Program-made: the position numbers and the translations under genes
Assembly: GCA_022508805.1 (NCBI GenBank)
Contig: JAFLUM010000013.1
Coordinates: 1-45,814, forward strand
Direction: 5' to 3'
DNA: 45,814 nucleotides
Source: Oscillospiraceae bacterium
GTDB lineage: Bacteria > Bacillota > Clostridia > Oscillospirales > Acutalibacteraceae
Shown: in pieces, positions 38,806 through 45,814 of the stretch
Layout: every line of letters begins with the position of its first letter
How positions within the stretch are numbered: position 1 is the first letter of the stretch
Notes under the pieces: model-generated
Database searches by the model: none
What the model saw: only the letters and a program-made list of their open reading frames with translations
What the model was told of the DNA's origin: nothing

Positions 38806-40911
38806 GTGAAAAGCAAATACAGTTTTAAGCTAAGAGCTGCTGCGTTTATTGCGGCGATCGTTTTCATAATTTCATTTTTTATTGCCGACCTTTTCAGAAT
38901 ACAGGTAATAAAGGGCGAGGAATACTCGTCTAAAAAAATCTCGCTATCGTCAGTTACATCAAAAATCACCGCATTACGCGGCGAGATACTTGACAGCAAC
39001 GGCAAGGCGCTTGCTTATAATGTTCCGTCAAATACAGTGTATTTAGACGCGTCATATTTTCCGCCTTCTTCTCAAAAAGAGGAGCGCAACAGAATAATGC
39101 TTTCGCTTATACATCTTTTTGACGAATACGGCACGGAGTACAACTCCTCATTGCCAATTGAGCAAAGCGGTGACGGCTTTGTCTTTACCGAAAACAGCAA
39201 CAGCGACAAAAATTACCTTTTTAAAAAGGATTATCTGAATTTAAACAGCTATGCTACGGCACAAAACTGCTTTGATGCGCTGAAAGAATACTATTTGCTT
39301 GAGGAGTTACCGGTTGACGAGGCTTTAAAGGTCGCAGGCGTGTTCTTCTTAATGACAAAGGGCGATTTTTCCACCGCAAACCCCTTTGTTTTTGCCGAAA
39401 ACGTTCCCGACGAGCTTGTGCTCATATTAAAGGAGCAAAGCAGAGATTTCAGCGGAGTTGAGACTCGTATAGACACCGACCGCACTTATTATGACGGTAC
39501 GATTGCTCCGCATATAATCGGCTTTTACGACTATATCAACGCGGACGAATACAGCGCGGTGACCGAGGAATACCGCGAAAAGCTCAAGGACGAGACCCTT
39601 ACTGACGAGGAAAAAACTCAGCTTTATTTGCGGTCATACGGAATGACAGACAAAATCGGCAAATTCGGGATTGAAAGCGCAATGGAGAACGAACTTCGCG
39701 GTACGGCGGGAGTATCCACAACCGTCACTAACGCCGACGGAACGAAAAACACGGAAATCACACAAAATCCCGTCAACGGCAACAACGTTATTTTGACAAT
39801 AAACGCGGATTTTCAAAAGCAGGTGCAGGAAATACTTCATACCCGCATCGAAAGCACTAAGGATTCAAAAAATGTTGCAGCGGCAGGCAGTATCGTTGTT
39901 ATGGACGTCAACGATTTTTCCGTGCTGGCGGCCGCCACATATCCGTCCTATGACCTTTCCACATACAAAAAGAATTTTGCCGCTCTCAGTGCTGACGAAG
40001 ACGCTCCCCTGTGGAACAGAGCGCTGAGAAGTGCTTACGCCCCCGGTTCAACGGCAAAGCCTGCTGTTTCCATAGCGGGTCTTGAGGAGGGCATTATAAC
40101 TGCCGACACAAAAATAACTTGTAACATTCTCTATACTTACTTTTCCGACAGACCCTTTATCTGTCAAAACGTGGGTCGCCACGCGTTTAGAGGTATAACG
40201 GTGGATGAGGCTCTGCGTTATTCCTGCAACACCTACTTCTATGAGGTGGGCAGACAGCTGGGCATCAACAAATTAGGCGAATATTTTTCAATGTTTGGAT
40301 TAGGTCAAAAAACGGGCGTTGAGATTTCGGAAGAGGCAGGAATGGTAGCAGGTCCCGAGGAACGCCAAGCGGCAGGCGGAGTATGGTATCCCGGCGATAC
40401 CGTTCAGGCGGCCATAGGTCAGTCCGACAACCTGTTTACGCCCATTCAGCTTGCGGCGTACGTTTCGACCCTTGCCAACGGCGGAACACGGTATAAGGCT
40501 CATTTCGTAAAGAGCATAAAATCCGCCGATTACTCCGAAACCCTTTTTGAAGCAGAGCCCGTCGTGCTTGACAGGCTTAACATTTCACCCTCGTCCCTGG
40601 CAGTCGTAAAAAAAGGTATGATCGCCATGGCAAATTCACAGCCGGCATTTAATGGAACGGATTTCCAAATAGCCGCAAAAACCGGTACCGCCGAGTTTCG
40701 AAAGCGTGTTAACGGTGAGGTTGTGAAGCTGACAAACGGATTTATGATTTCCTACGCCCCGGCAGAAAATCCGCAGATAGCCGTAGTTATCGCGGTAGAA
40801 AATATCACCAGCTCCGGTATGGCAACCTATGTAAGAGAGGTCTATGAGGCATATTTTAACGGCGGTACAGACATAACCGCCTCCCAACCCGGTGGCACGG
40901 TGCTTAGATAA
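38806..40911 (+). CDS. mrdA: Penicillin-binding protein 2 (elongation-specific transpeptidase)
   Basis: A 701-residue class B PBP. It has an N-terminal membrane helix (about 10-30), a dimerisation/pedestal region (50-320), and the transpeptidase domain with STAK at 415-418, SCN at 473-475 and KTG at 625-627. It begins with GTG at 38806, 10 bases after AAAGGTGGTG. It follows mreBCD, so it is probably the elongasome PBP; the adjacent rodA usual in many bacteria is missing and lies instead at 4358. Confidence 0.93.
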   Translation: MKSKYSFKLRAAAFIAAIVFIISFFIADLFRIQVIKGEEYSSKKISLSSVTSKITALRGEILDSNGKALAYNVPSNTVYLDASYFPPSSQKEERNRIMLSLIHLFDEYGTEYNSSLPIEQSGDGFVFTENSNSDKNYLFKKDYLNLNSYATAQNCFDALKEYYLLEELPVDEALKVAGVFFLMTKGDFSTANPFVFAENVPDELVLILKEQSRDFSGVETRIDTDRTYYDGTIAPHIIGFYDYINADEYSAVTEEYREKLKDETLTDEEKTQLYLRSYGMTDKIGKFGIESAMENELRGTAGVSTTVTNADGTKNTEITQNPVNGNNVILTINADFQKQVQEILHTRIESTKDSKNVAAAGSIVVMDVNDFSVLAAATYPSYDLSTYKKNFAALSADEDAPLWNRALRSAYAPGSTAKPAVSIAGLEEGIITADTKITCNILYTYFSDRPFICQNVGRHAFRGITVDEALRYSCNTYFYEVGRQLGINKLGEYFSMFGLGQKTGVEISEEAGMVAGPEERQAAGGVWYPGDTVQAAIGQSDNLFTPIQLAAYVSTLANGGTRYKAHFVKSIKSADYSETLFEAEPVVLDRLNISPSSLAVVKKGMIAMANSQPAFNGTDFQIAAKTGTAEFRKRVNGEVVKLTNGFMISYAPAENPQIAVVIAVENITSSGMATYVREVYEAYFNGGTDITASQPGGTVLR

Positions 40912-40943
40912 ACACATTTAAATTCAGACTGAATATATTACGC

Positions 40944-40975
40944 AACCCGCTCTGTATTTATATACAAAGCGGGTT
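40944..40975 (+). terminator. Hairpin after the mre operon
   Basis: AACCCGCT (40944-40951) pairs with AGCGGGTT (40968-40975), with TGTAT/ATACA inside. The next bases are AAAAATT rather than T, so termination may be weak. Confidence 0.5.
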
Positions 40976-41011
40976 AAAAATTACCATTGTCTCCCTCTGA
41001 TGGGGGCTCAA

Positions 41012-41175
41012 TATTTATCTGCCATTTTTTGAATTTCTGCTTTAATTCCCCCACGGAACCACGGAGGAGAAATCACATCAAGCCCGCCCCTTTGCGAAAG
41101 GATCCGGCGCTTAACGCCCTTGATGTAGATTCCCGCTTCAACGATTGTATGATCGTATTCTTCTAAAAGCGGATA
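41012..41175 (-). pseudogene. Decayed C-terminal fragment of a WYL-domain regulator
   Basis: Read on the minus strand, about 50 codons give EYDHTIVEAGIYIKGVKRR, then LSQRGGLDVISPPWFRGGIKAEIQKMADKY. This closely matches the last 60 residues of the intact WYL protein at 44539-45543 (DYAIVEAEIYSEGVKRW... and ...EIQKMANNY). No upstream remainder of the gene is recognisable. The rest of the 40912-41315 gap holds only the terminator and A+T-rich spacer. Confidence 0.75.
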
Positions 41176-41279
41176 AAGCTAAGCGATATCGGCACAAAAT
41201 GATTTCGTTAAAAATTCATAGAAATTTCGTGAGCGTTGATAAATATAGGTCTTAGGGCAATATGTGCCAAGAAATTCGA

Positions 41280-41297
41280 GCACAAAAAAGACTCTAT
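41280..41297 (+). repeat. 18-base direct repeat, island-side copy (possible attachment site)
   Basis: GCACAAAAAAGACTCTAT matches 45697-45714 (GCATAAAAAAGACTCTAT) in 17 of 18 positions and in the same orientation. The other copy is half of the tRNA-Leu terminator. The repeats bracket the accessory genes. The A run makes chance similarity possible. Confidence 0.35.
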
Positions 41298-41315
41298 ACA
41301 CCCTTTCATTCAGAC

Positions 41316-41633
41316 TCACATAGCTTTAAGTTTTTGCAGACAAGATAAGCAAATATGATGCTCGTTCGTATCCTTTTTCCTCGAAACGAAAAGCTCATCT
41401 TGCCCGATTAGGTCTTTTAAAATAAAGTGATTATTTCCTGTATAAAACCTTACAATATCTTTGTCAGAACCGCAATACGGGCATTTTACAACAGCCTTTT
41501 CAATTACGATTTTGTCGTCTTCCATATATACGGTTACTAAATCTTCTTCTCGGAGTCCCCACGCTTTCCTAATTTCAGCGGGGAGAACAAGCCTGCCGTT
41601 GGAATCCGTATGTGTTGTTTTAAACTTTCTCAT
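41316..41633 (-). CDS. AbrB/MazE-fold protein with Cys4 zinc-ribbon-like tail
   Basis: A 105-residue protein. Residues 5-46 fit the swapped-hairpin AbrB DNA-binding fold (DSNGRLVLPAEIRKAWGL, then a strand VTVYMEDDKIVIEK). The second half has CPYC (51, 54) and CLSC (95, 98), a likely zinc site about 40 residues apart. The ATG at 41633 follows AGGTG; an earlier GTG overlaps that site. AbrB proteins regulate transcription, often their own. Its binding site lies in a folded leader. Role in the island is unknown. Confidence 0.8.
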   Translation of the reverse strand: MRKFKTTHTDSNGRLVLPAEIRKAWGLREEDLVTVYMEDDKIVIEKAVVKCPYCGSDKDIVRFYTGNNHFILKDLIGQDELFVSRKKDTNEHHICLSCLQKLKAM

Positions 41634-41643
41634 TATGCACACC

Positions 41644-41728
41644 TACCCACTAAGCGATAAAAAATAACAGGCTCTTAAAGTTGCCTTTAAGAGCCATTAT
41701 ACTTGTCCTGTTGGACAAGGAGTGGGTA
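41644..41728 (-). promoter_or_regulatory. Folded leader closing over the ribosome binding site of the AbrB gene, with terminator hairpin
   Basis: TACCCACT (41644-41651) and AGTGGGTA (41721-41728) are perfect complements and enclose two hairpins: GGCTCTTAAAG with CTTTAAGAGCC (41670-41695) and CTTGTCC with GGACAAG (41702-41719). On the minus strand the first is followed by TGTTATTTTTT, so it is also a terminator for the upstream operon. The outer stem's 3' arm sits just before the AGGTG of the AbrB gene, so folding could limit its translation. Confidence 0.55.
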
Positions 41729-41733
41729 AGTAA

Positions 41734-42900
41734 TTAAAAATATAAAAATGAAAAGATTATTGATAACGCCGCGACAAAAAGAGAAACACCGGCAATAATT
41801 GATGAGATCGATACTCTCGTTTTTAGTTTTTCATCAGCAGCTTTCATTTCTAAGATTTCTTTTTCAAGCCGTTCAACTAAAGCCATCAATTGTTCTTCCA
41901 GATTATCTACATCGTCCTGAAGCTCGTAGACATCCTCTTCAATTTCATCGATGTTTTCATCGTGTTCCTGAATTATTTTATCCTGTCTTTGATCGTTTTC
42001 CTGGAGTTCGTCGACGTCCTCTTCAATTTCATCAATGTTTTCTTCGTGTTCTTGTATTTTTTTATCCTGTCTTTGGTCGTTTTCTTGAAGCTCGTCGACA
42101 TCCTCTTCAATTTCATCGATGTTTTCATCGTGTTCCTGAATTTTTATATCCTGTCTTTGGTCGTTTTCCTGAAGCTCGTCAACGTCCTCTTCAATTTCAT
42201 CAATGTTTTCATCGTGCTCTTGTATTTTTATATCCTGTCTTTGATCATTTTCCTGAAGCTCATCAACGTCTTCTTCGATTTCATCGATGTTTTCATCATG
42301 CTCTTGAATTATTTTATCTTGTCTTTGGTCGTTCTTTTGAATTTCACCGAAATCTTCCGATATTTTTAAATACCTCTCAATAAAATCTTTTTCCAAAGAA
42401 TCTATTGTTTCTTGCATTTTTTCAGCATCTTCATTGGCTTTTTTTGCCTGTTCCACTGCGCTGTCAATATAATTCTCTATAAGGGCAAAGTGTTTGTTAA
42501 CTCTTTCTTTATATTTTTTGTTTTCGTCTTCTGAAGCATCCTTTAAATCCTTTATGCGTTGTCGATTGTTGCGGACGGCAGAGCTTATTTCTCCCAAAGC
42601 ATTCGAGTCCATTCCGACTACGAAAACAACAGCGTTGACGCAAGCGATAATTGTTGCGGTGACATTATTTTGACCAGTCATAATGGTGCCGATTTCTTTT
42701 ATATTATTATGGAACATCCTTTTTATAAAAGATTGATCTTGTAAGGCTGTTATATTTTTCTCAATAGTCTTTAAATTCTCTTCTTGTTCTGTTATAGATT
42801 CGCAAAGCACATTGATAGTTTCTACCGCACCGATGTTTAATTCTTTCCTTTCGGCAGGACTCATTTGAAGAATTTCTTGAATAGTTAATTCATTAGTCAT
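41734..42900 (-). CDS. Membrane-anchored coiled-coil protein with five 28-residue repeats
   Basis: A 388-residue protein of unknown function. Residues 1-75 are a helical domain; 79-97 are hydrophobic (ATIIACVNAVVFVVGM); 110-188 helical; 190-329 are five near-identical 28-residue repeats (NDQRQDKIIQEHDENIDEIE..., four heptads each); 330-360 coiled coil; 365-387 a C-terminal membrane helix. The repeats predict a long rod. The ATG at 42900 follows GGTG; a GTG three codons earlier overlaps that site. It starts 12 bases after the HNH gene stop, so both are probably made and used together. Confidence 0.82.
   Translation of the reverse strand: MTNELTIQEILQMSPAERKELNIGAVETINVLCESITEQEENLKTIEKNITALQDQSFIKRMFHNNIKEIGTIMTGQNNVTATIIACVNAVVFVVGMDSNALGEISSAVRNNRQRIKDLKDASEDENKKYKERVNKHFALIENYIDSAVEQAKKANEDAEKMQETIDSLEKDFIERYLKISEDFGEIQKNDQRQDKIIQEHDENIDEIEEDVDELQENDQRQDIKIQEHDENIDEIEEDVDELQENDQRQDIKIQEHDENIDEIEEDVDELQENDQRQDKKIQEHEENIDEIEEDVDELQENDQRQDKIIQEHDENIDEIEEDVYELQDDVDNLEEQLMALVERLEKEILEMKAADEKLKTRVSISSIIAGVSLFVAALSIIFSFLYF
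41914..42333 (-). repeat. Five tandem 84-bp coding repeats
   Basis: Five direct repeats of 84 bases encode the 28-residue units of the coiled-coil protein. Units differ by scattered silent and a few coding changes (DKII, DIKI, DKKI; HDEN/HEEN; VDELQE/VYELQD), so expansion was not the last event. Copy number could vary between strains. Confidence 0.9.
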
Positions 42901-42912
42901 TTTAATCACCGT

Positions 42913-44535
42913 TTATCCTTTTATTTTTTCAAGAAGTCGTTGTTCCCAATCATCCTCTTCGTCATCATTTATTGTCACTACGTCGTTATCCATGTCCATT
43001 TGCGCTATATCTGCCATATCTTTGTCTATTTGACGGCGTGTTTCAAAACTGTTTTGAACAAGACTTAATGTGTCAATTGAAAGGTCGCCAGCAGCCGCCG
43101 TATTTAGAGCAACGCCTGCATGAGCAGCTGTCAAAGCAGCATTGGTTTCATTAACTCTTTTAATAAATTTATTAACAAAATAGAAAACTACGACGGAAAT
43201 CAGCCCTGTCAATAAACCGACAATAACATTTGCAAGACTTTCGCTTATATCGCTTAGAGGCGGAATTGTTTTCAACTGTGTGACAAGAGATTGCACAAGA
43301 ACTATTCCAAGGGTAGCTAATATTGCATCAAAAACGACCTGAGAAGCGGCAACAAGTCTCGTTTCAAAGGGAACGTTTTTATCAGCCATAATTTTGATAG
43401 CCCGAACAAATGAATTTATATTTTCACGGATCATTGTTACAACTTTAGCAGCAGTCGTGAAGAAGCAATTAACTACATATGTAAAAAGTGTGGACAAAAA
43501 TCCTGCTCCCGCACTTGCTCCAAGGGTTTTCATTATTTCCTTGAATTTGTCGGCATTCAGATTTTTTTCTTTGAATTGCCCCATTCTTTCTTTAAGCAGG
43601 CGTTTTAAATCTGAAAGGAACTTTTTAAAGTCTTCATCTTTGTCTGATTTGTAAGTCTTTATTGTATCGGTTATTACATCTACAAGGAATCCCGCCATTT
43701 CGCTTAAAAGTAACCCAATAGCAGCACGCAAAGCGTTTTTGCCTGCATCCTTAGCACCCTGTTTTGCCAGTGCAGACGCGTGGTATTTTATTACTCTTGA
43801 TGTAGGCGGGCGATGATCTTCCACAGCTTGTTGCGCTTTTTCTTTGGCTTCAGCCATTAAATCATCTTTCATTCCGTATTTTTCTTTATTTGTCTGTTTC
43901 CCGTCACTGGAGGTTTTATTGGCAAAGTCGTCAAGATCTTGATCGCTTTTGCTCTTGTTCAGTGATTGATCGGTGACAGCGTGATTTCTGCTGTCAGCGC
44001 CGACTGCCGCCCGTTCTTCTTTGCTGAGCATATATCCGTAATCTTTATGGATTTCATGACGAGAAATGACGTGATCGACATTGACATCGTTAGGCTCAAG
44101 TGTTTTGCCTGTATATGCATCGATAATAGGCCCGTTTCCGCTTTTTGCCTCCTTTACTTTCTTTTTATATTCAGCACGGCAATATTCATCACCGTCATAT
44201 TGTTCTTCTTTTTTTGAAAAAATCCCTTGACTTGCATTATGCTGAGTAGTAACGTTTCCGCCGAGACGATCGTTAAATAAAGCGGGACTGATGCCGAAAG
44301 GACCTAAGACGGCATTTATAATAACGTTGCAGCACTGTTTTGACAGTTCGTTAACATCCGTGCCGTTACTGTTGTTGCAAAAATCGTCTATAATATCTTT
44401 ATATCGGTCTAACTGAGCTTTTGACTTTTCTCTAAAGTAAACGCCGTTCAAAGCTTTGTTAAAATCTTCAAAATCAATGCTTTCATAAGCCTCAGCATCA
44501 TTGATATCCAAAATCACATTTTTGGTTTCCGGCAT
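42913..44535 (-). CDS. HNH-nuclease-like protein with C-terminal membrane segments, function unknown
   Basis: A 540-residue protein. Residues 1-100 are unrecognised; 138-197 resemble an HNH (beta-beta-alpha metal) nuclease: DAYTGKTL, then VDHVIS (D154, H155), then N184 and LNKSK (N193). 215-250 is charged; hydrophobic segments at about 268-290, 338-365, 400-420 and 434-457 suggest three or four membrane helices; the tail is acidic. A nuclease ahead of membrane helices is unusual. The ATG at 44535 uses AAAGGAG at the end of the WYL gene, so the pair is translated together. A defence effector is the leading guess; a structural membrane protein with a vestigial fold is possible. Confidence 0.7.
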   Translation of the reverse strand: MPETKNVILDINDAEAYESIDFEDFNKALNGVYFREKSKAQLDRYKDIIDDFCNNSNGTDVNELSKQCCNVIINAVLGPFGISPALFNDRLGGNVTTQHNASQGIFSKKEEQYDGDEYCRAEYKKKVKEAKSGNGPIIDAYTGKTLEPNDVNVDHVISRHEIHKDYGYMLSKEERAAVGADSRNHAVTDQSLNKSKSDQDLDDFANKTSSDGKQTNKEKYGMKDDLMAEAKEKAQQAVEDHRPPTSRVIKYHASALAKQGAKDAGKNALRAAIGLLLSEMAGFLVDVITDTIKTYKSDKDEDFKKFLSDLKRLLKERMGQFKEKNLNADKFKEIMKTLGASAGAGFLSTLFTYVVNCFFTTAAKVVTMIRENINSFVRAIKIMADKNVPFETRLVAASQVVFDAILATLGIVLVQSLVTQLKTIPPLSDISESLANVIVGLLTGLISVVVFYFVNKFIKRVNETNAALTAAHAGVALNTAAAGDLSIDTLSLVQNSFETRRQIDKDMADIAQMDMDNDVVTINDDEEDDWEQRLLEKIKG

Positions 44536-44538
44536 TTT

Positions 44539-45543
44539 TCATTCTCCTTTATATAATAATTTGTAATTATTTGCCATTTTTTGGATTTCAGCCTTGATTT
44601 CTTCACGGAACCACTCCGGTGAAAGCACCTCAAGCCCGTCTTTTTGTGAAAGCATCCAGCGTTTAACGCCCTCGCTGTAAATTTCCGCTTCAACGATTGC
44701 ATAATCCTTATTCTTTTCAATGACTTTAGACGTGGGCAGTCTGTCGAGAGCCGCTTCAAGACTGTTGCCGTTGAACTTAAATCGAACGGTGGAAAGCTTT
44801 CCCGGATACATAAACTGTATCCTGTTCTTGTACTCGCCTTCTTTGAACTGCCTTGAATATGGAATACTGAATTTTTGACCCGTGGGAGCTATATTTTCGA
44901 TTCGGTCAATACGGAAATTCTTCGGATACTCGTTTGTACTGTTGCAGTCGATTGCCGCAAGATAAAAATAATATTCGGAAAACATTATCGCAACGGGATT
45001 TACGGTTCTTTGTGAAACGGATAGATCCTGCTTTGTATATGTAAAGGTGATTTGCCGACAATTACTTATGTATTCGGTAAGCTGCCAAATGTGCTTGACA
45101 ATATCTTTGCCGTGGAGGGGCTGAACGTATGAATACAGGTCGCTTTTGAGAAATTCCTTAATTTTATGAGCCATATCGGGTGACGCCTGTGACAACAGCT
45201 TATGCACAAGCGTTTCCGCTTCATCTTTACTGAAAGCCCGACTTTCAAGCAGAATTTTTGATATGGCAAGAATTTCGTCAGGGGAGAACCATTCCCGTTC
45301 GGCTTTCACAAGGCGGTAACAGTTTTTCGCCCGATCATATTCAATAAATGAATCGGCATCGTAAAAATCTTTTTCGGAAATATAGACTCTCAGCGCCTCA
45401 ATGTCTCTCTGTATGCTTTTCGGACTTACACCGAATTCGTCGGCAAGAGCACTTTTGTTTATTTCTCCACCCTTTAAAAGCCGTTCGTATATGGTAAGCA
45501 GACGAAAGCCCTTTTTCTCGTTAGCATCAAAATTTGCAGTCAT
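44539..45543 (-). CDS. WYL-domain transcriptional regulator
   Basis: A 334-residue regulator: an N-terminal winged helix-turn-helix (about 10-60, with INKSALADEFGVSPKSIQRDIEAL), a linker, the WYL domain (about 150-225, with TVNPVAIMFSEYYFYLAAID, where YYFYL stands at the WYL position) and a WCX-type C-terminal domain. WYL proteins bind nucleic acid or nucleotide ligands and control several phage-defence operons, for example BrxR and CapW. It is the first gene of the operon and probably controls it. The gap upstream (45544-45700) carries its promoter. Confidence 0.9.
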   Translation of the reverse strand: MTANFDANEKKGFRLLTIYERLLKGGEINKSALADEFGVSPKSIQRDIEALRVYISEKDFYDADSFIEYDRAKNCYRLVKAEREWFSPDEILAISKILLESRAFSKDEAETLVHKLLSQASPDMAHKIKEFLKSDLYSYVQPLHGKDIVKHIWQLTEYISNCRQITFTYTKQDLSVSQRTVNPVAIMFSEYYFYLAAIDCNSTNEYPKNFRIDRIENIAPTGQKFSIPYSRQFKEGEYKNRIQFMYPGKLSTVRFKFNGNSLEAALDRLPTSKVIEKNKDYAIVEAEIYSEGVKRWMLSQKDGLEVLSPEWFREEIKAEIQKMANNYKLLYKGE

Positions 45544-45635
45544 ATTTTCATTCCTTTCAACCGATCAACCAAAGTATAACACAGCAAATGGACAAAATAT
45601 GAGCATCTAATAACAATGATATTTCTGTTTTCTAC

Positions 45636-45664
45636 ATATTACCACAAAAAAACGCTTTTGTCAT
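45636..45664 (-). promoter_or_regulatory. Probable promoter of the WYL operon
   Basis: On the minus strand ATGACA (45664-45659), 17 bases, TAATAT (45641-45636). A second TATACT-like hexamer lies at 45578-45573 without a clear -35. Direct or inverted operator repeats are not obvious. Confidence 0.45.
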
Positions 45665-45696
45665 CAAATTTGAATGTTTTTCAGTTATAATTACGG

Positions 45697-45714
45697 GCAT
45701 AAAAAAGACTCTAT
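45697..45714 (+). repeat. 18-base direct repeat, tRNA-side copy (possible attachment site)
   Basis: GCATAAAAAAGACTCTAT overlaps the tRNA-Leu terminator and matches 41280-41297 with one difference. Sites at tRNA 3' ends are common integration targets. No integrase gene is present between the copies. Confidence 0.35.
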
Positions 45715-45730
45715 CCGAAGATAGAGTCTT
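45701..45730 (-). terminator. Terminator of tRNA-Leu
   Basis: AAGACTCTATC and its complement GATAGAGTCTT form a strong stem right after the CCA end; on the minus strand six T follow. Confidence 0.85.
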
Positions 45731-45813
45731 GGTGCGAGAGACGGGACTTGAACCCGTACGGGATTACCACACGCCCCTCAAACGTGCGCGTCTGCCGATT
45801 CCGCCACTCTCGC
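45730..45813 (-). tRNA. tRNA-Leu (anticodon GAG)
   Basis: On the minus strand the acceptor stem GCGAGAG pairs with CTCTCGC, followed by A and an encoded CCA. The D arm (TGGCGGAATCGGCAGAC), anticodon arm with loop TTGAGGG (GAG), the long class II variable arm and the T arm GGGTTCAAGTCCC are all present. GAG reads CUC/CUU leucine codons. The gene lies wholly inside the window by one base. Confidence 0.93.
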
Positions 45814-45814
45814 A

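What the first reader, a model, noticed from the sequence alone, without database searches (positions are those of the whole stretch)
41734..45543. Undescribed-looking operon: WYL regulator, HNH-like membrane protein, repeat coiled-coil membrane protein
Three tightly packed genes (gaps of 3 and 12 bases) lie beside a tRNA-Leu in an A+T-rich patch among housekeeping genes. The regulator is of a class known to control phage-defence operons (BrxR, CapW). The middle protein joins an HNH-like motif (D154-H155, N184, N193) to three or four membrane helices. The third is a membrane-anchored rod. I know no named defence system with this set. One model is a membrane-held nuclease triggered by a coiled-coil sensor; this is inference.
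Basis: partly seen in the sequence, partly recalled or inferred. Interest (0 to 1): 0.8.

Follow-up and report, generated by a model that had tools for sequence, protein, structure and literature searches.

The report
Membrane-tethered HNH nuclease with coiled-coil partner
A small gene set that probably protects a bacterium from viruses by pairing a membrane-anchored DNA-cutting enzyme with a long rod-shaped partner; it is a divergent relative of a catalogued but untested candidate defence system, and its cutting protein also occurs with other partners, one of which is a known detector of giant phages.

Summary
A WYL regulator, an HNH-like protein with a hydrophobic C-terminal half, and a coiled-coil protein with a hydrophobic tail form a tight operon beside tRNA-Leu. 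The middle protein is not unknown: it matches PADLOC candidate PDC-M40B (2.7e-55). Of the 80 species-genome loci held (best of 131), 79 have a partner gene of one of three classes within 1.3 kb: PDC-M09A-like 33, PDC-M40C-like coiled coil 31, JukA or glycine-zipper/TerB 15; the last has an unclassified neighbour. The tree puts the window with the coiled-coil branch, though on a long branch, and its highest identities are outside it. Its rod matches no PDC-M40C model, so this is a variant. The operon lies in a 4.4-kb insert beside tRNA-Leu, next to the remnant of another WYL gene. Relatives occur on plasmids, in a Tn7-like element and in jumbo phages. Best model: a membrane-held nuclease switched on by an exchangeable envelope sensor. 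Defence is likely (about 0.8); the mechanism is inferred, and no structure could be predicted.

The parts
44539..45543 (-). WYL-domain transcriptional regulator (HTH_11 + WYL + WCX), first gene of the operon
   Evidence: Pfam WYL 3.4e-10, HTH_11 2.6e-7, WCX 4.7e-6, all above cut-off; 45% identical to the WYL gene that heads an HNH-membrane operon on a C. difficile plasmid
42913..44535 (-). HNH-like protein with hydrophobic, membrane-type C-terminal half (540 aa)
   Evidence: PADLOC PDC-M40B 2.7e-55; conserved HNH residues; hydropathy
43948..44121 (-). HNH core: residues 139-196 (D139-x-Y, D154-H155, N184, N193, K196)
   Evidence: D154 89/90, H155 90/90, N184 90/90, N193 90/90, K196 73/90; HNH_4 and GmrSD_C Pfam matches in 4 and 6 of 32 relatives over this region, none for the window copy itself
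44236..44301 (-). conserved element ahead of the HNH core, residues 79-100 (FGI...D..GGNVTT.HN), function unknown
   Evidence: eight positions invariant in the 10 sequences, which were found without this motif; the 80 loci were selected by it
43141..43524 (-). hydrophobic membrane-type region, residues 338-465, about three segments
   Evidence: family-averaged hydropathy peaks near residues 350, 409 and 442 over 60 members; topology not tested
41734..42909 (-). coiled-coil protein with hydrophobic tail (391 aa; alternative ATG start 9 bases in)
   Evidence: heptad power 4.30 vs at most 1.56 in 1000 shuffles
41915..42333 (-). 84-bp tandem repeat, 5.0 copies = 28 residues = four heptads per unit
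   Evidence: Tandem Repeats Finder, 88% matches, no indels
41737..41808 (-). C-terminal hydrophobic segment of the rod (residues 368-391)
   Evidence: hydropathy maximum 2.57
42607..42663 (-). second hydrophobic stretch in the N-terminal part of the rod (about residues 83-101), also present in the Variovorax partner
   Evidence: hydropathy 2.0 at residue 92; Variovorax peak at 90
45636..45664 (-). promoter-like site upstream of the WYL gene (ATGACA-17-TAATAT, TG before the second hexamer)
   Evidence: consensus scan, 16 sites in the region against 12.4 +- 3.5 in shuffles, so no more than chance
41670..41695 (-). 11-bp hairpin with T-rich tail, terminator-like in both directions, after the rod gene
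   Evidence: 8 terminator-like sites in the region against 4.4 +- 2.5 in shuffles; this is one of the three longest stems
45689..45714 (.). right copy of the 26-bp direct repeat that bounds the insert (beside tRNA-Leu)
   Evidence: D5, 85% identical; alignment
41272..41297 (.). left copy of the direct repeat, end of the displaced tRNA-Leu 3' flank (41203-41297)
   Evidence: 41203-41297 aligns to the sequence that ends 15 bases from tRNA-Leu in same-genus genome G1177, score 128 vs at most 29 in 300 shuffles and at most 27 for the 18 other relatives' loci
41012..41154 (-). remnant of another WYL gene (its C-terminal part)
   Evidence: 80% identical to 44564-44706 (D2); tblastn 67% identity over 48 aa, 1.9e-19
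45730..45813 (-). tRNA-Leu (GAG), insertion site
   Evidence: ARAGORN

Best explanation
This is a horizontally acquired, WYL-regulated anti-phage module of two membrane proteins. The HNH protein would be held at the inner membrane by its C-terminal helices, with the nuclease in the cytoplasm. The heptad-repeat rod, anchored by its tail, would act as envelope sensor or adaptor: it would detect phage DNA entry or envelope disturbance and bring or unlock the nuclease there, so that DNA is cut at the membrane early in infection. The WYL protein would hold the operon low until a ligand releases it. Shown here: gene order, conserved HNH residues, hydrophobic regions, heptad rod, constant nearby partner gene, partner classes that follow the nuclease tree, and an insert beside tRNA-Leu. 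Inferred: defence function, nuclease activity, topology, triggering, direct contact between the two proteins, repression by WYL.
For: PADLOC PDC-M40B match 2.7e-55; the nucleases beside JukA and M09A partners match the same model (6.2e-62 L006; 3.3e-64 L068 and 6.9e-40 L089). HNH residues in 89-90 of 90 rows; weak HNH_4/GmrSD_C Pfam matches among relatives. Partner class at 80 loci: M09A-like 33, M40C-like 31, JukA/TerB 15, other 1. Partner class needs 10 changes on the 92-row nuclease tree against a shuffled mean of 43.4, as low in 0 of 200; the window falls in a clade (SH-aLRT 97) of 35 rows: 33 M40C, the Variovorax copy with a coiled-coil-like partner, and itself. JukA stands beside this nuclease in Citrobacter (2.4e-58) and Mailhella (5.1e-48); JukA is a sensor that recruits an effector to the infection site according to a review, PMC13282480 (passages seen). 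WYL within 1.3 kb at 26 of 80. Tn7-like element at glmS in E. coli. Some defence genes among 96 flanking proteins. Absent from the 39 other genomes. A 4.4-kb insert beside tRNA-Leu.
Against: No phage experiment on this or any PDC-M40 locus was found. The window copy itself has no HNH Pfam match; over whole proteins more relatives match the transporter family BPD_transp_1 (10 of 60) than GmrSD_C (7 of 60); the HNH-region profile finds no solved structure. The rod is not recognised as PDC-M40C by PADLOC or by my profile (no better than background), and has no relative in the other 294 of 295 genomes of the order, in plasmids or in IMG/VR. The window's tree branch is long (1.92), and its highest identities are to nucleases outside the coiled-coil clade (L011 31%; L012 30%), so the clade placement is not certain. 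In the flank scan no family matched more than 2 of 96 proteins, and no control was run. Five of the seven M40C loci with a WYL gene are near-identical Stutzerimonas/Pseudomonas copies with a modest WYL score.
Confidence: 0.6

Rival explanations
1. A toxin-antitoxin-like or abortive module: the HNH membrane protein damages host DNA or the membrane, and the coiled-coil partner keeps it silent until infection. (Overlaps with the best explanation: it could also be anti-phage.)
For: Two genes with short gaps; in E. coli the pair, without WYL or SMI1 gene, sits in a Tn7-like element among IS elements; in Zorya II population-wide immunity is attributed to host chromosomal DNA damage (PMC11890865: abstract and section headings seen).
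Against: The partners are long or membrane-type proteins rather than small antitoxins, and fall into sequence-unrelated clusters while the nuclease family is constant.
Confidence: 0.3
2. A plasmid- or conjugation-exclusion system (defence against incoming DNA other than phage).
For: Membrane placement would suit any incoming DNA (inference); relatives are themselves found on plasmids (70 of 72,556 records).
Against: JukA partners and phage-borne copies point to phage.
Confidence: 0.15
3. A pore-forming, JukB-like effector in which the C-terminal membrane region acts and the HNH domain only adds DNA binding or cutting.
For: It lies directly downstream of JukA in Citrobacter and Mailhella; JukB is described as forming pores on the early infection vesicle (PMC13282480, passages).
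Against: The HNH residues are among the most constant positions of the protein.
Confidence: 0.15
4. Not defence: a phage remnant (XhlA/holin-like rod) or a polymorphic-toxin locus.
For: The rod passes the Pfam XhlA cut-off narrowly (35.8 vs 34.7 bits).
Against: The best XhlA stretch covers profile positions 5-47 of 67 and lies in the repeat, so it is probably a coiled-coil match; the HNH domain is N-terminal, unlike the C-terminal toxin tips of polymorphic toxins (recalled).
Confidence: 0.06

Closest known systems
PDC-M40 (PADLOC-DB phage defence candidate: A SMI1/KNR4, B HNH-membrane, C coiled coil)
   Same: B component matches at 2.7e-55; nuclease then coiled coil with hydrophobic tail in the same order; the tree puts the window with the M40C loci
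   Different: The rod matches no PDC-M40C model; no A gene (also not seen near 15 of the 31 M40C-type loci: SMI1 at 16 of 31); a WYL regulator in front (also near 7 of the 31)
Juk (JukA sensor with varied effectors)
   Same: The same HNH-membrane family stands beside JukA in Citrobacter and Mailhella; likely the same logic of sensor plus recruited membrane effector
   Different: No JukA in the window; PADLOC reported no JukB match for the window nuclease, and whether PADLOC holds a JukB model was not checked
Zorya type II (ZorA/ZorB motor plus ZorE nickase)
   Same: Membrane complex with a long cytoplasmic tail working with a nickase (that ZorE is an HNH protein is recalled)
   Different: No ZorA or ZorB match here; the nuclease carries its own membrane part
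BrxR/CapW WYL regulators
   Same: HTH-WYL-WCX protein heading a defence-type operon
   Different: Repression and operator not tested; no inverted repeat of 14 bases or more was listed between 45544 and 45743, apart from the 11-bp hairpin at 45705-45730
PDC-M09 (M09A partner)
   Same: M09A-like proteins are the commonest partner of this nuclease family (33 of 80)
   Different: No M09A match in the window

Membership tests
HNH nuclease superfamily | conserved D-H...N...N residues | tested here: met
   89, 90, 90 and 90 of 90 rows
HNH nuclease superfamily | profile match to a curated HNH family | tested here: inconclusive
   relatives: GmrSD_C 6/32 (best 2.9e-4), HNH_4 4/32 (best 0.0054); window copy none
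HNH nuclease superfamily | metal-dependent DNA cleavage | not testable with these tools
   needs purified protein
PDC-M40 | M40B protein | tested here: met
   2.7e-55
PDC-M40 | M40C coiled-coil protein | tested here: not met
   no PDC-M40C among matches up to E=1; my M40C profile at background; only layout and tail agree
PDC-M40 | M40A SMI1/KNR4 protein | tested here: not met
   none among the four proteins scanned; the other ORFs listed for 41300-45814 overlap these genes in other frames and were not scanned. At 16 of 31 M40C-type loci an SMI1 gene is present, so it is not universal there either
Juk | JukA protein | tested here: not met
   no JukA match for any of the four window proteins scanned
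Zorya | ZorA and ZorB | tested here: not met
   no ZorA or ZorB match for the four window proteins; only the Variovorax rod has a weak ZorA1 match, 1.2e-4
WYL regulators | HTH plus WYL plus WCX domains | tested here: met
WYL regulators of the BrxR/CapW type | repression of the defence operon through an upstream operator | not testable with these tools
   needs reporter and binding assays
XhlA haemolysin (Pfam PF10779) | whole-domain match including its C-terminal part | tested here: not met
   score just above cut-off, but the best stretch covers profile 5-47 of 67, in the repeat

The most novel reading that the evidence does not exclude
One membrane-tethered HNH nuclease family is a general effector platform that bacteria couple to interchangeable envelope sensors (coiled-coil rods, JukA, PDC-M09A, TerB-like proteins), guarding the membrane where phage DNA enters. 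Nucleus-forming jumbo phages carry their own copy to exclude rivals. The window version uses a rod with near-identical four-heptad repeats whose length could be tuned by repeat number.
Probability: 0.35. Interest if true: 0.8.

Novelty: new variant of a known kind. Interest (0 to 1): 0.58.

Why it matters
It gives an apparently untested catalogue entry (PDC-M40) a concrete, testable mechanism, and joins it through one shared effector family to the anti-jumbo-phage Juk sensor and to PDC-M09. If right, it shows that bacteria combine one membrane-held nuclease with different envelope sensors, and it predicts which domain does what. That Chimalliviridae phages carry such a pair raises the question whether they use it against competitors.

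Tried and rejected
A PDB profile search with the family gave one chance match, E 0.51, and with the HNH region nothing. Linking the window rod to PDC-M40C by profile failed. Searches for other copies of the rod failed in plasmids, IMG/VR and 295 genomes of the order, own included; the own genome has one further weak match, E 0.04, in a frame with two stops. A first viral-contig scan with the single nuclease found no relative; the profile scan found two, not studied further. A search of the E. coli genomes for the Citrobacter JukA pair found nothing in 'near' mode. Searches for a paper naming PDC-M40 or PDC-M09 and for an HNH-membrane-coiled-coil defence system found none in the held library, which lacks most subscription journals and, it states, bioRxiv preprints (one turned up); the original Juk paper was not seen. 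The XhlA match was rejected as coiled-coil similarity. The AbrB-like gene 41316-41642 was left out of the operon because a terminator-like hairpin (41670-41695) separates it. The flank scan took the two longest ORFs of 220-900 aa outside the operon from each locus, left out 12 near-copy loci, and stopped at the residue limit: 96 proteins from 50 of the 80 loci.
Full report
OBSERVATION. Gaps are 3 and 3 bases, or 3 and 12 with the later ATG. tRNA-Leu(GAG) is at 45730-45813. The patch is A+T-rich. A terminator-like hairpin follows the rod gene, and a promoter-like site precedes the WYL gene; promoter-like sites in this region are no more frequent than in shuffles. An AbrB-like gene lies beyond the hairpin.

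THE NUCLEASE. PADLOC names the middle protein PDC-M40B, 2.7e-55. Pfam and NCBIfam give nothing above a curated cut-off and PHROGs nothing below E 0.016. tblastn finds relatives in 70 of 72,556 plasmid records and 7 of 50,697 phage records. A profile scan of the species genomes found 131 relatives, of which the best 80 are held. In an alignment of 90 rows (window, 9 plasmid/phage, 80 genome loci) H155, N184 and N193 are present in 90, D154 in 89, K196 in 73. The scan pattern lay in the separate GGNVTT.HN element, so the HNH residues were not selected for; that element is itself invariant in the ten sequences, which were found without it. Over whole proteins 7 of 60 relatives match GmrSD_C weakly, fewer than the 10 that match the transporter family BPD_transp_1. 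Over the HNH region alone 6 of 32 match GmrSD_C and 4 of 32 HNH_4; the window copy matches neither. The likeness of the spacing to the Cas9-type HNH is recalled, not tested. The C-terminal half has three family-averaged hydrophobic peaks; single members have 1 to 6 over the whole protein.

THE ROD. Residues 121-365 have strong 3.5-residue periodicity (4.30 against at most 1.56 in 1000 shuffles), five 28-residue repeats and a C-terminal hydrophobic segment. Twenty-five of the 26 members of my M40C cluster also end in such a segment. Sequence does not link the window rod to M40C, and no other copy was found.

PARTNERS. Clusters of neighbouring genes at the 80 loci, corrected for four loci where my ORF caller had chosen too early a start for the partner (L020, L028, L030, L033), give M09A-like 33, M40C-like 31, JukA/TerB 15, other 1, within 1.3 kb and on the same strand. 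Partners are often, not always, the adjacent gene: in M09A loci a YkgJ and sometimes a TerB gene may stand between. Three loci with both M09A and a TerB-type gene (L065, L071, L073) are counted as M09A. The one 'other' (L011) has an adjacent 509-aa gene without a Pfam match. Near-copies were not removed. Only representatives were named with PADLOC: M40C in L002 and L004; M09A in L007, L009, L010 and in L036 for the eight-member Bacillota cluster; JukA 2.4e-58 in Citrobacter L006 and 5.1e-48 in Mailhella L069; M40A = SMI1/KNR4 in L041. L012 and L031 of the JukA/TerB cluster are not JukA by PADLOC, so that class is mixed. SMI1 genes stand near 16 of the 31 M40C loci. WYL genes lie within 1.3 kb at 26 of 80 loci. 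The window WYL is 45% identical to the one heading an M09A-type operon on a C. difficile plasmid and 39-40% to those of a Rummeliibacillus and a Paenibacillus locus, although the C. difficile nuclease is only about 20% identical; this may partly reflect shared phylum.

TREE. On a quick maximum-likelihood tree of 92 nucleases (L046, a short row, left out) the window lies in a 35-row clade (SH-aLRT 97) of 33 M40C rows, the Variovorax plasmid copy with its own coiled-coil-like partner, and itself; the partner label needs 10 changes against a shuffled mean of 43.4. Against this, the window's branch is long, and its highest identities are to L011 (31%) and L012 (30%), which lie outside the clade and have other partners.

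DISTRIBUTION AND MOBILITY. None of the 39 other genomes (24 of the same genus) has the nuclease. In evenly drawn sets matches at E<=0.001, own genome included, are 7 of 394 (order), 7 of 391 (class) and 11 of 398 (phylum); matches below 1e-30 are 3 in each set, own included. In same-genus genome G1177 a stretch alike to window 41203-41297 ends 15 bases from tRNA-Leu; in the window 4.4 kb, with the operon, lies between them, bounded by 26-bp direct repeats of 85% identity. Of 20 loci fetched around this tRNA, 16 from other same-genus genomes have a readable 3' flank of about 1.5 kb; none matches the WYL, HNH or AbrB-like proteins, and two carry phage-integrase genes or pieces. Left of the insert lies the remnant of another WYL gene. 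In E. coli CUPF06 the pair sits, among IS elements, between tnsE of a Tn7-like element at glmS and the pst genes; it occurs in 2 of 5426 E. coli genomes in 'near' mode. Among 96 flanking proteins from 50 loci PADLOC finds matches below 1e-15 to Gabija, type I, II and III restriction-modification, MADS and other families, none in more than 2 of the 96; the number of distinct proteins hit was not given and no control was run. Phage LAh10 has an M09A protein (3.3e-16) beside an HNH copy with all four residues, phage D6 a same-sized gene beside its copy; both records are placed in Ludhianavirus, family Chimalliviridae.

MECHANISM. JukA senses early phage proteins at the infection site and recruits an effector (PMC13282480, passages). 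Zorya pairs a membrane complex carrying a long cytoplasmic tail with, in type II, a nickase (PMC11890865, abstract and headings). WYL repressors of the BrxR family are often found near defence systems (PMC9122601, abstract and one section). By these analogies the HNH-membrane protein is most likely a membrane-held nuclease guided by an envelope sensor. PDC entries are candidates from a 'guilt-by-embedding' search, most of them not validated (PMC12988326, passages).

Noticed in passing
phage LAh10 MK838116.1 (L010:3937-6533), phage D6 MN131137.2 (L172): Jumbo phages of the genus Ludhianavirus (Chimalliviridae) carry the HNH-membrane gene, in LAh10 with an M09A partner and all four HNH residues; they may use it to exclude other phages.
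   Followed up: partly
41012-41154: Remnant of a second WYL gene just outside the insert, suggesting successive WYL-led insertions at this tRNA-Leu.
   Followed up: partly
343-2520 and 38806-45814: A pnp-like gene lies at the left end of the window while the PBP-like gene at 38806-40911 is next to the insert (names recalled); in 10 of 14 same-genus loci listed the two lie within about 2 kb, so this contig carries a rearrangement or an assembly artefact. The contig ends one base after tRNA-Leu, and 55 bases of that tRNA recur on contig C30.
   Followed up: partly
41316-41642: AbrB/MazE-like protein with cysteine pairs (CPYC...CLSC) like a zinc ribbon, inside the insert but beyond the hairpin.
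   Followed up: no
L053, L058, L061 and 20 other loci: A small YkgJ-family cysteine-cluster protein accompanies the M09A version at 23 of 80 loci and no other version; a metal or redox role is unexplained.
   Followed up: no
44236-44301: The GGNVTT.HN element ahead of the HNH core is as constant as the HNH residues in the ten unselected sequences; no family match to it was seen.
   Followed up: no
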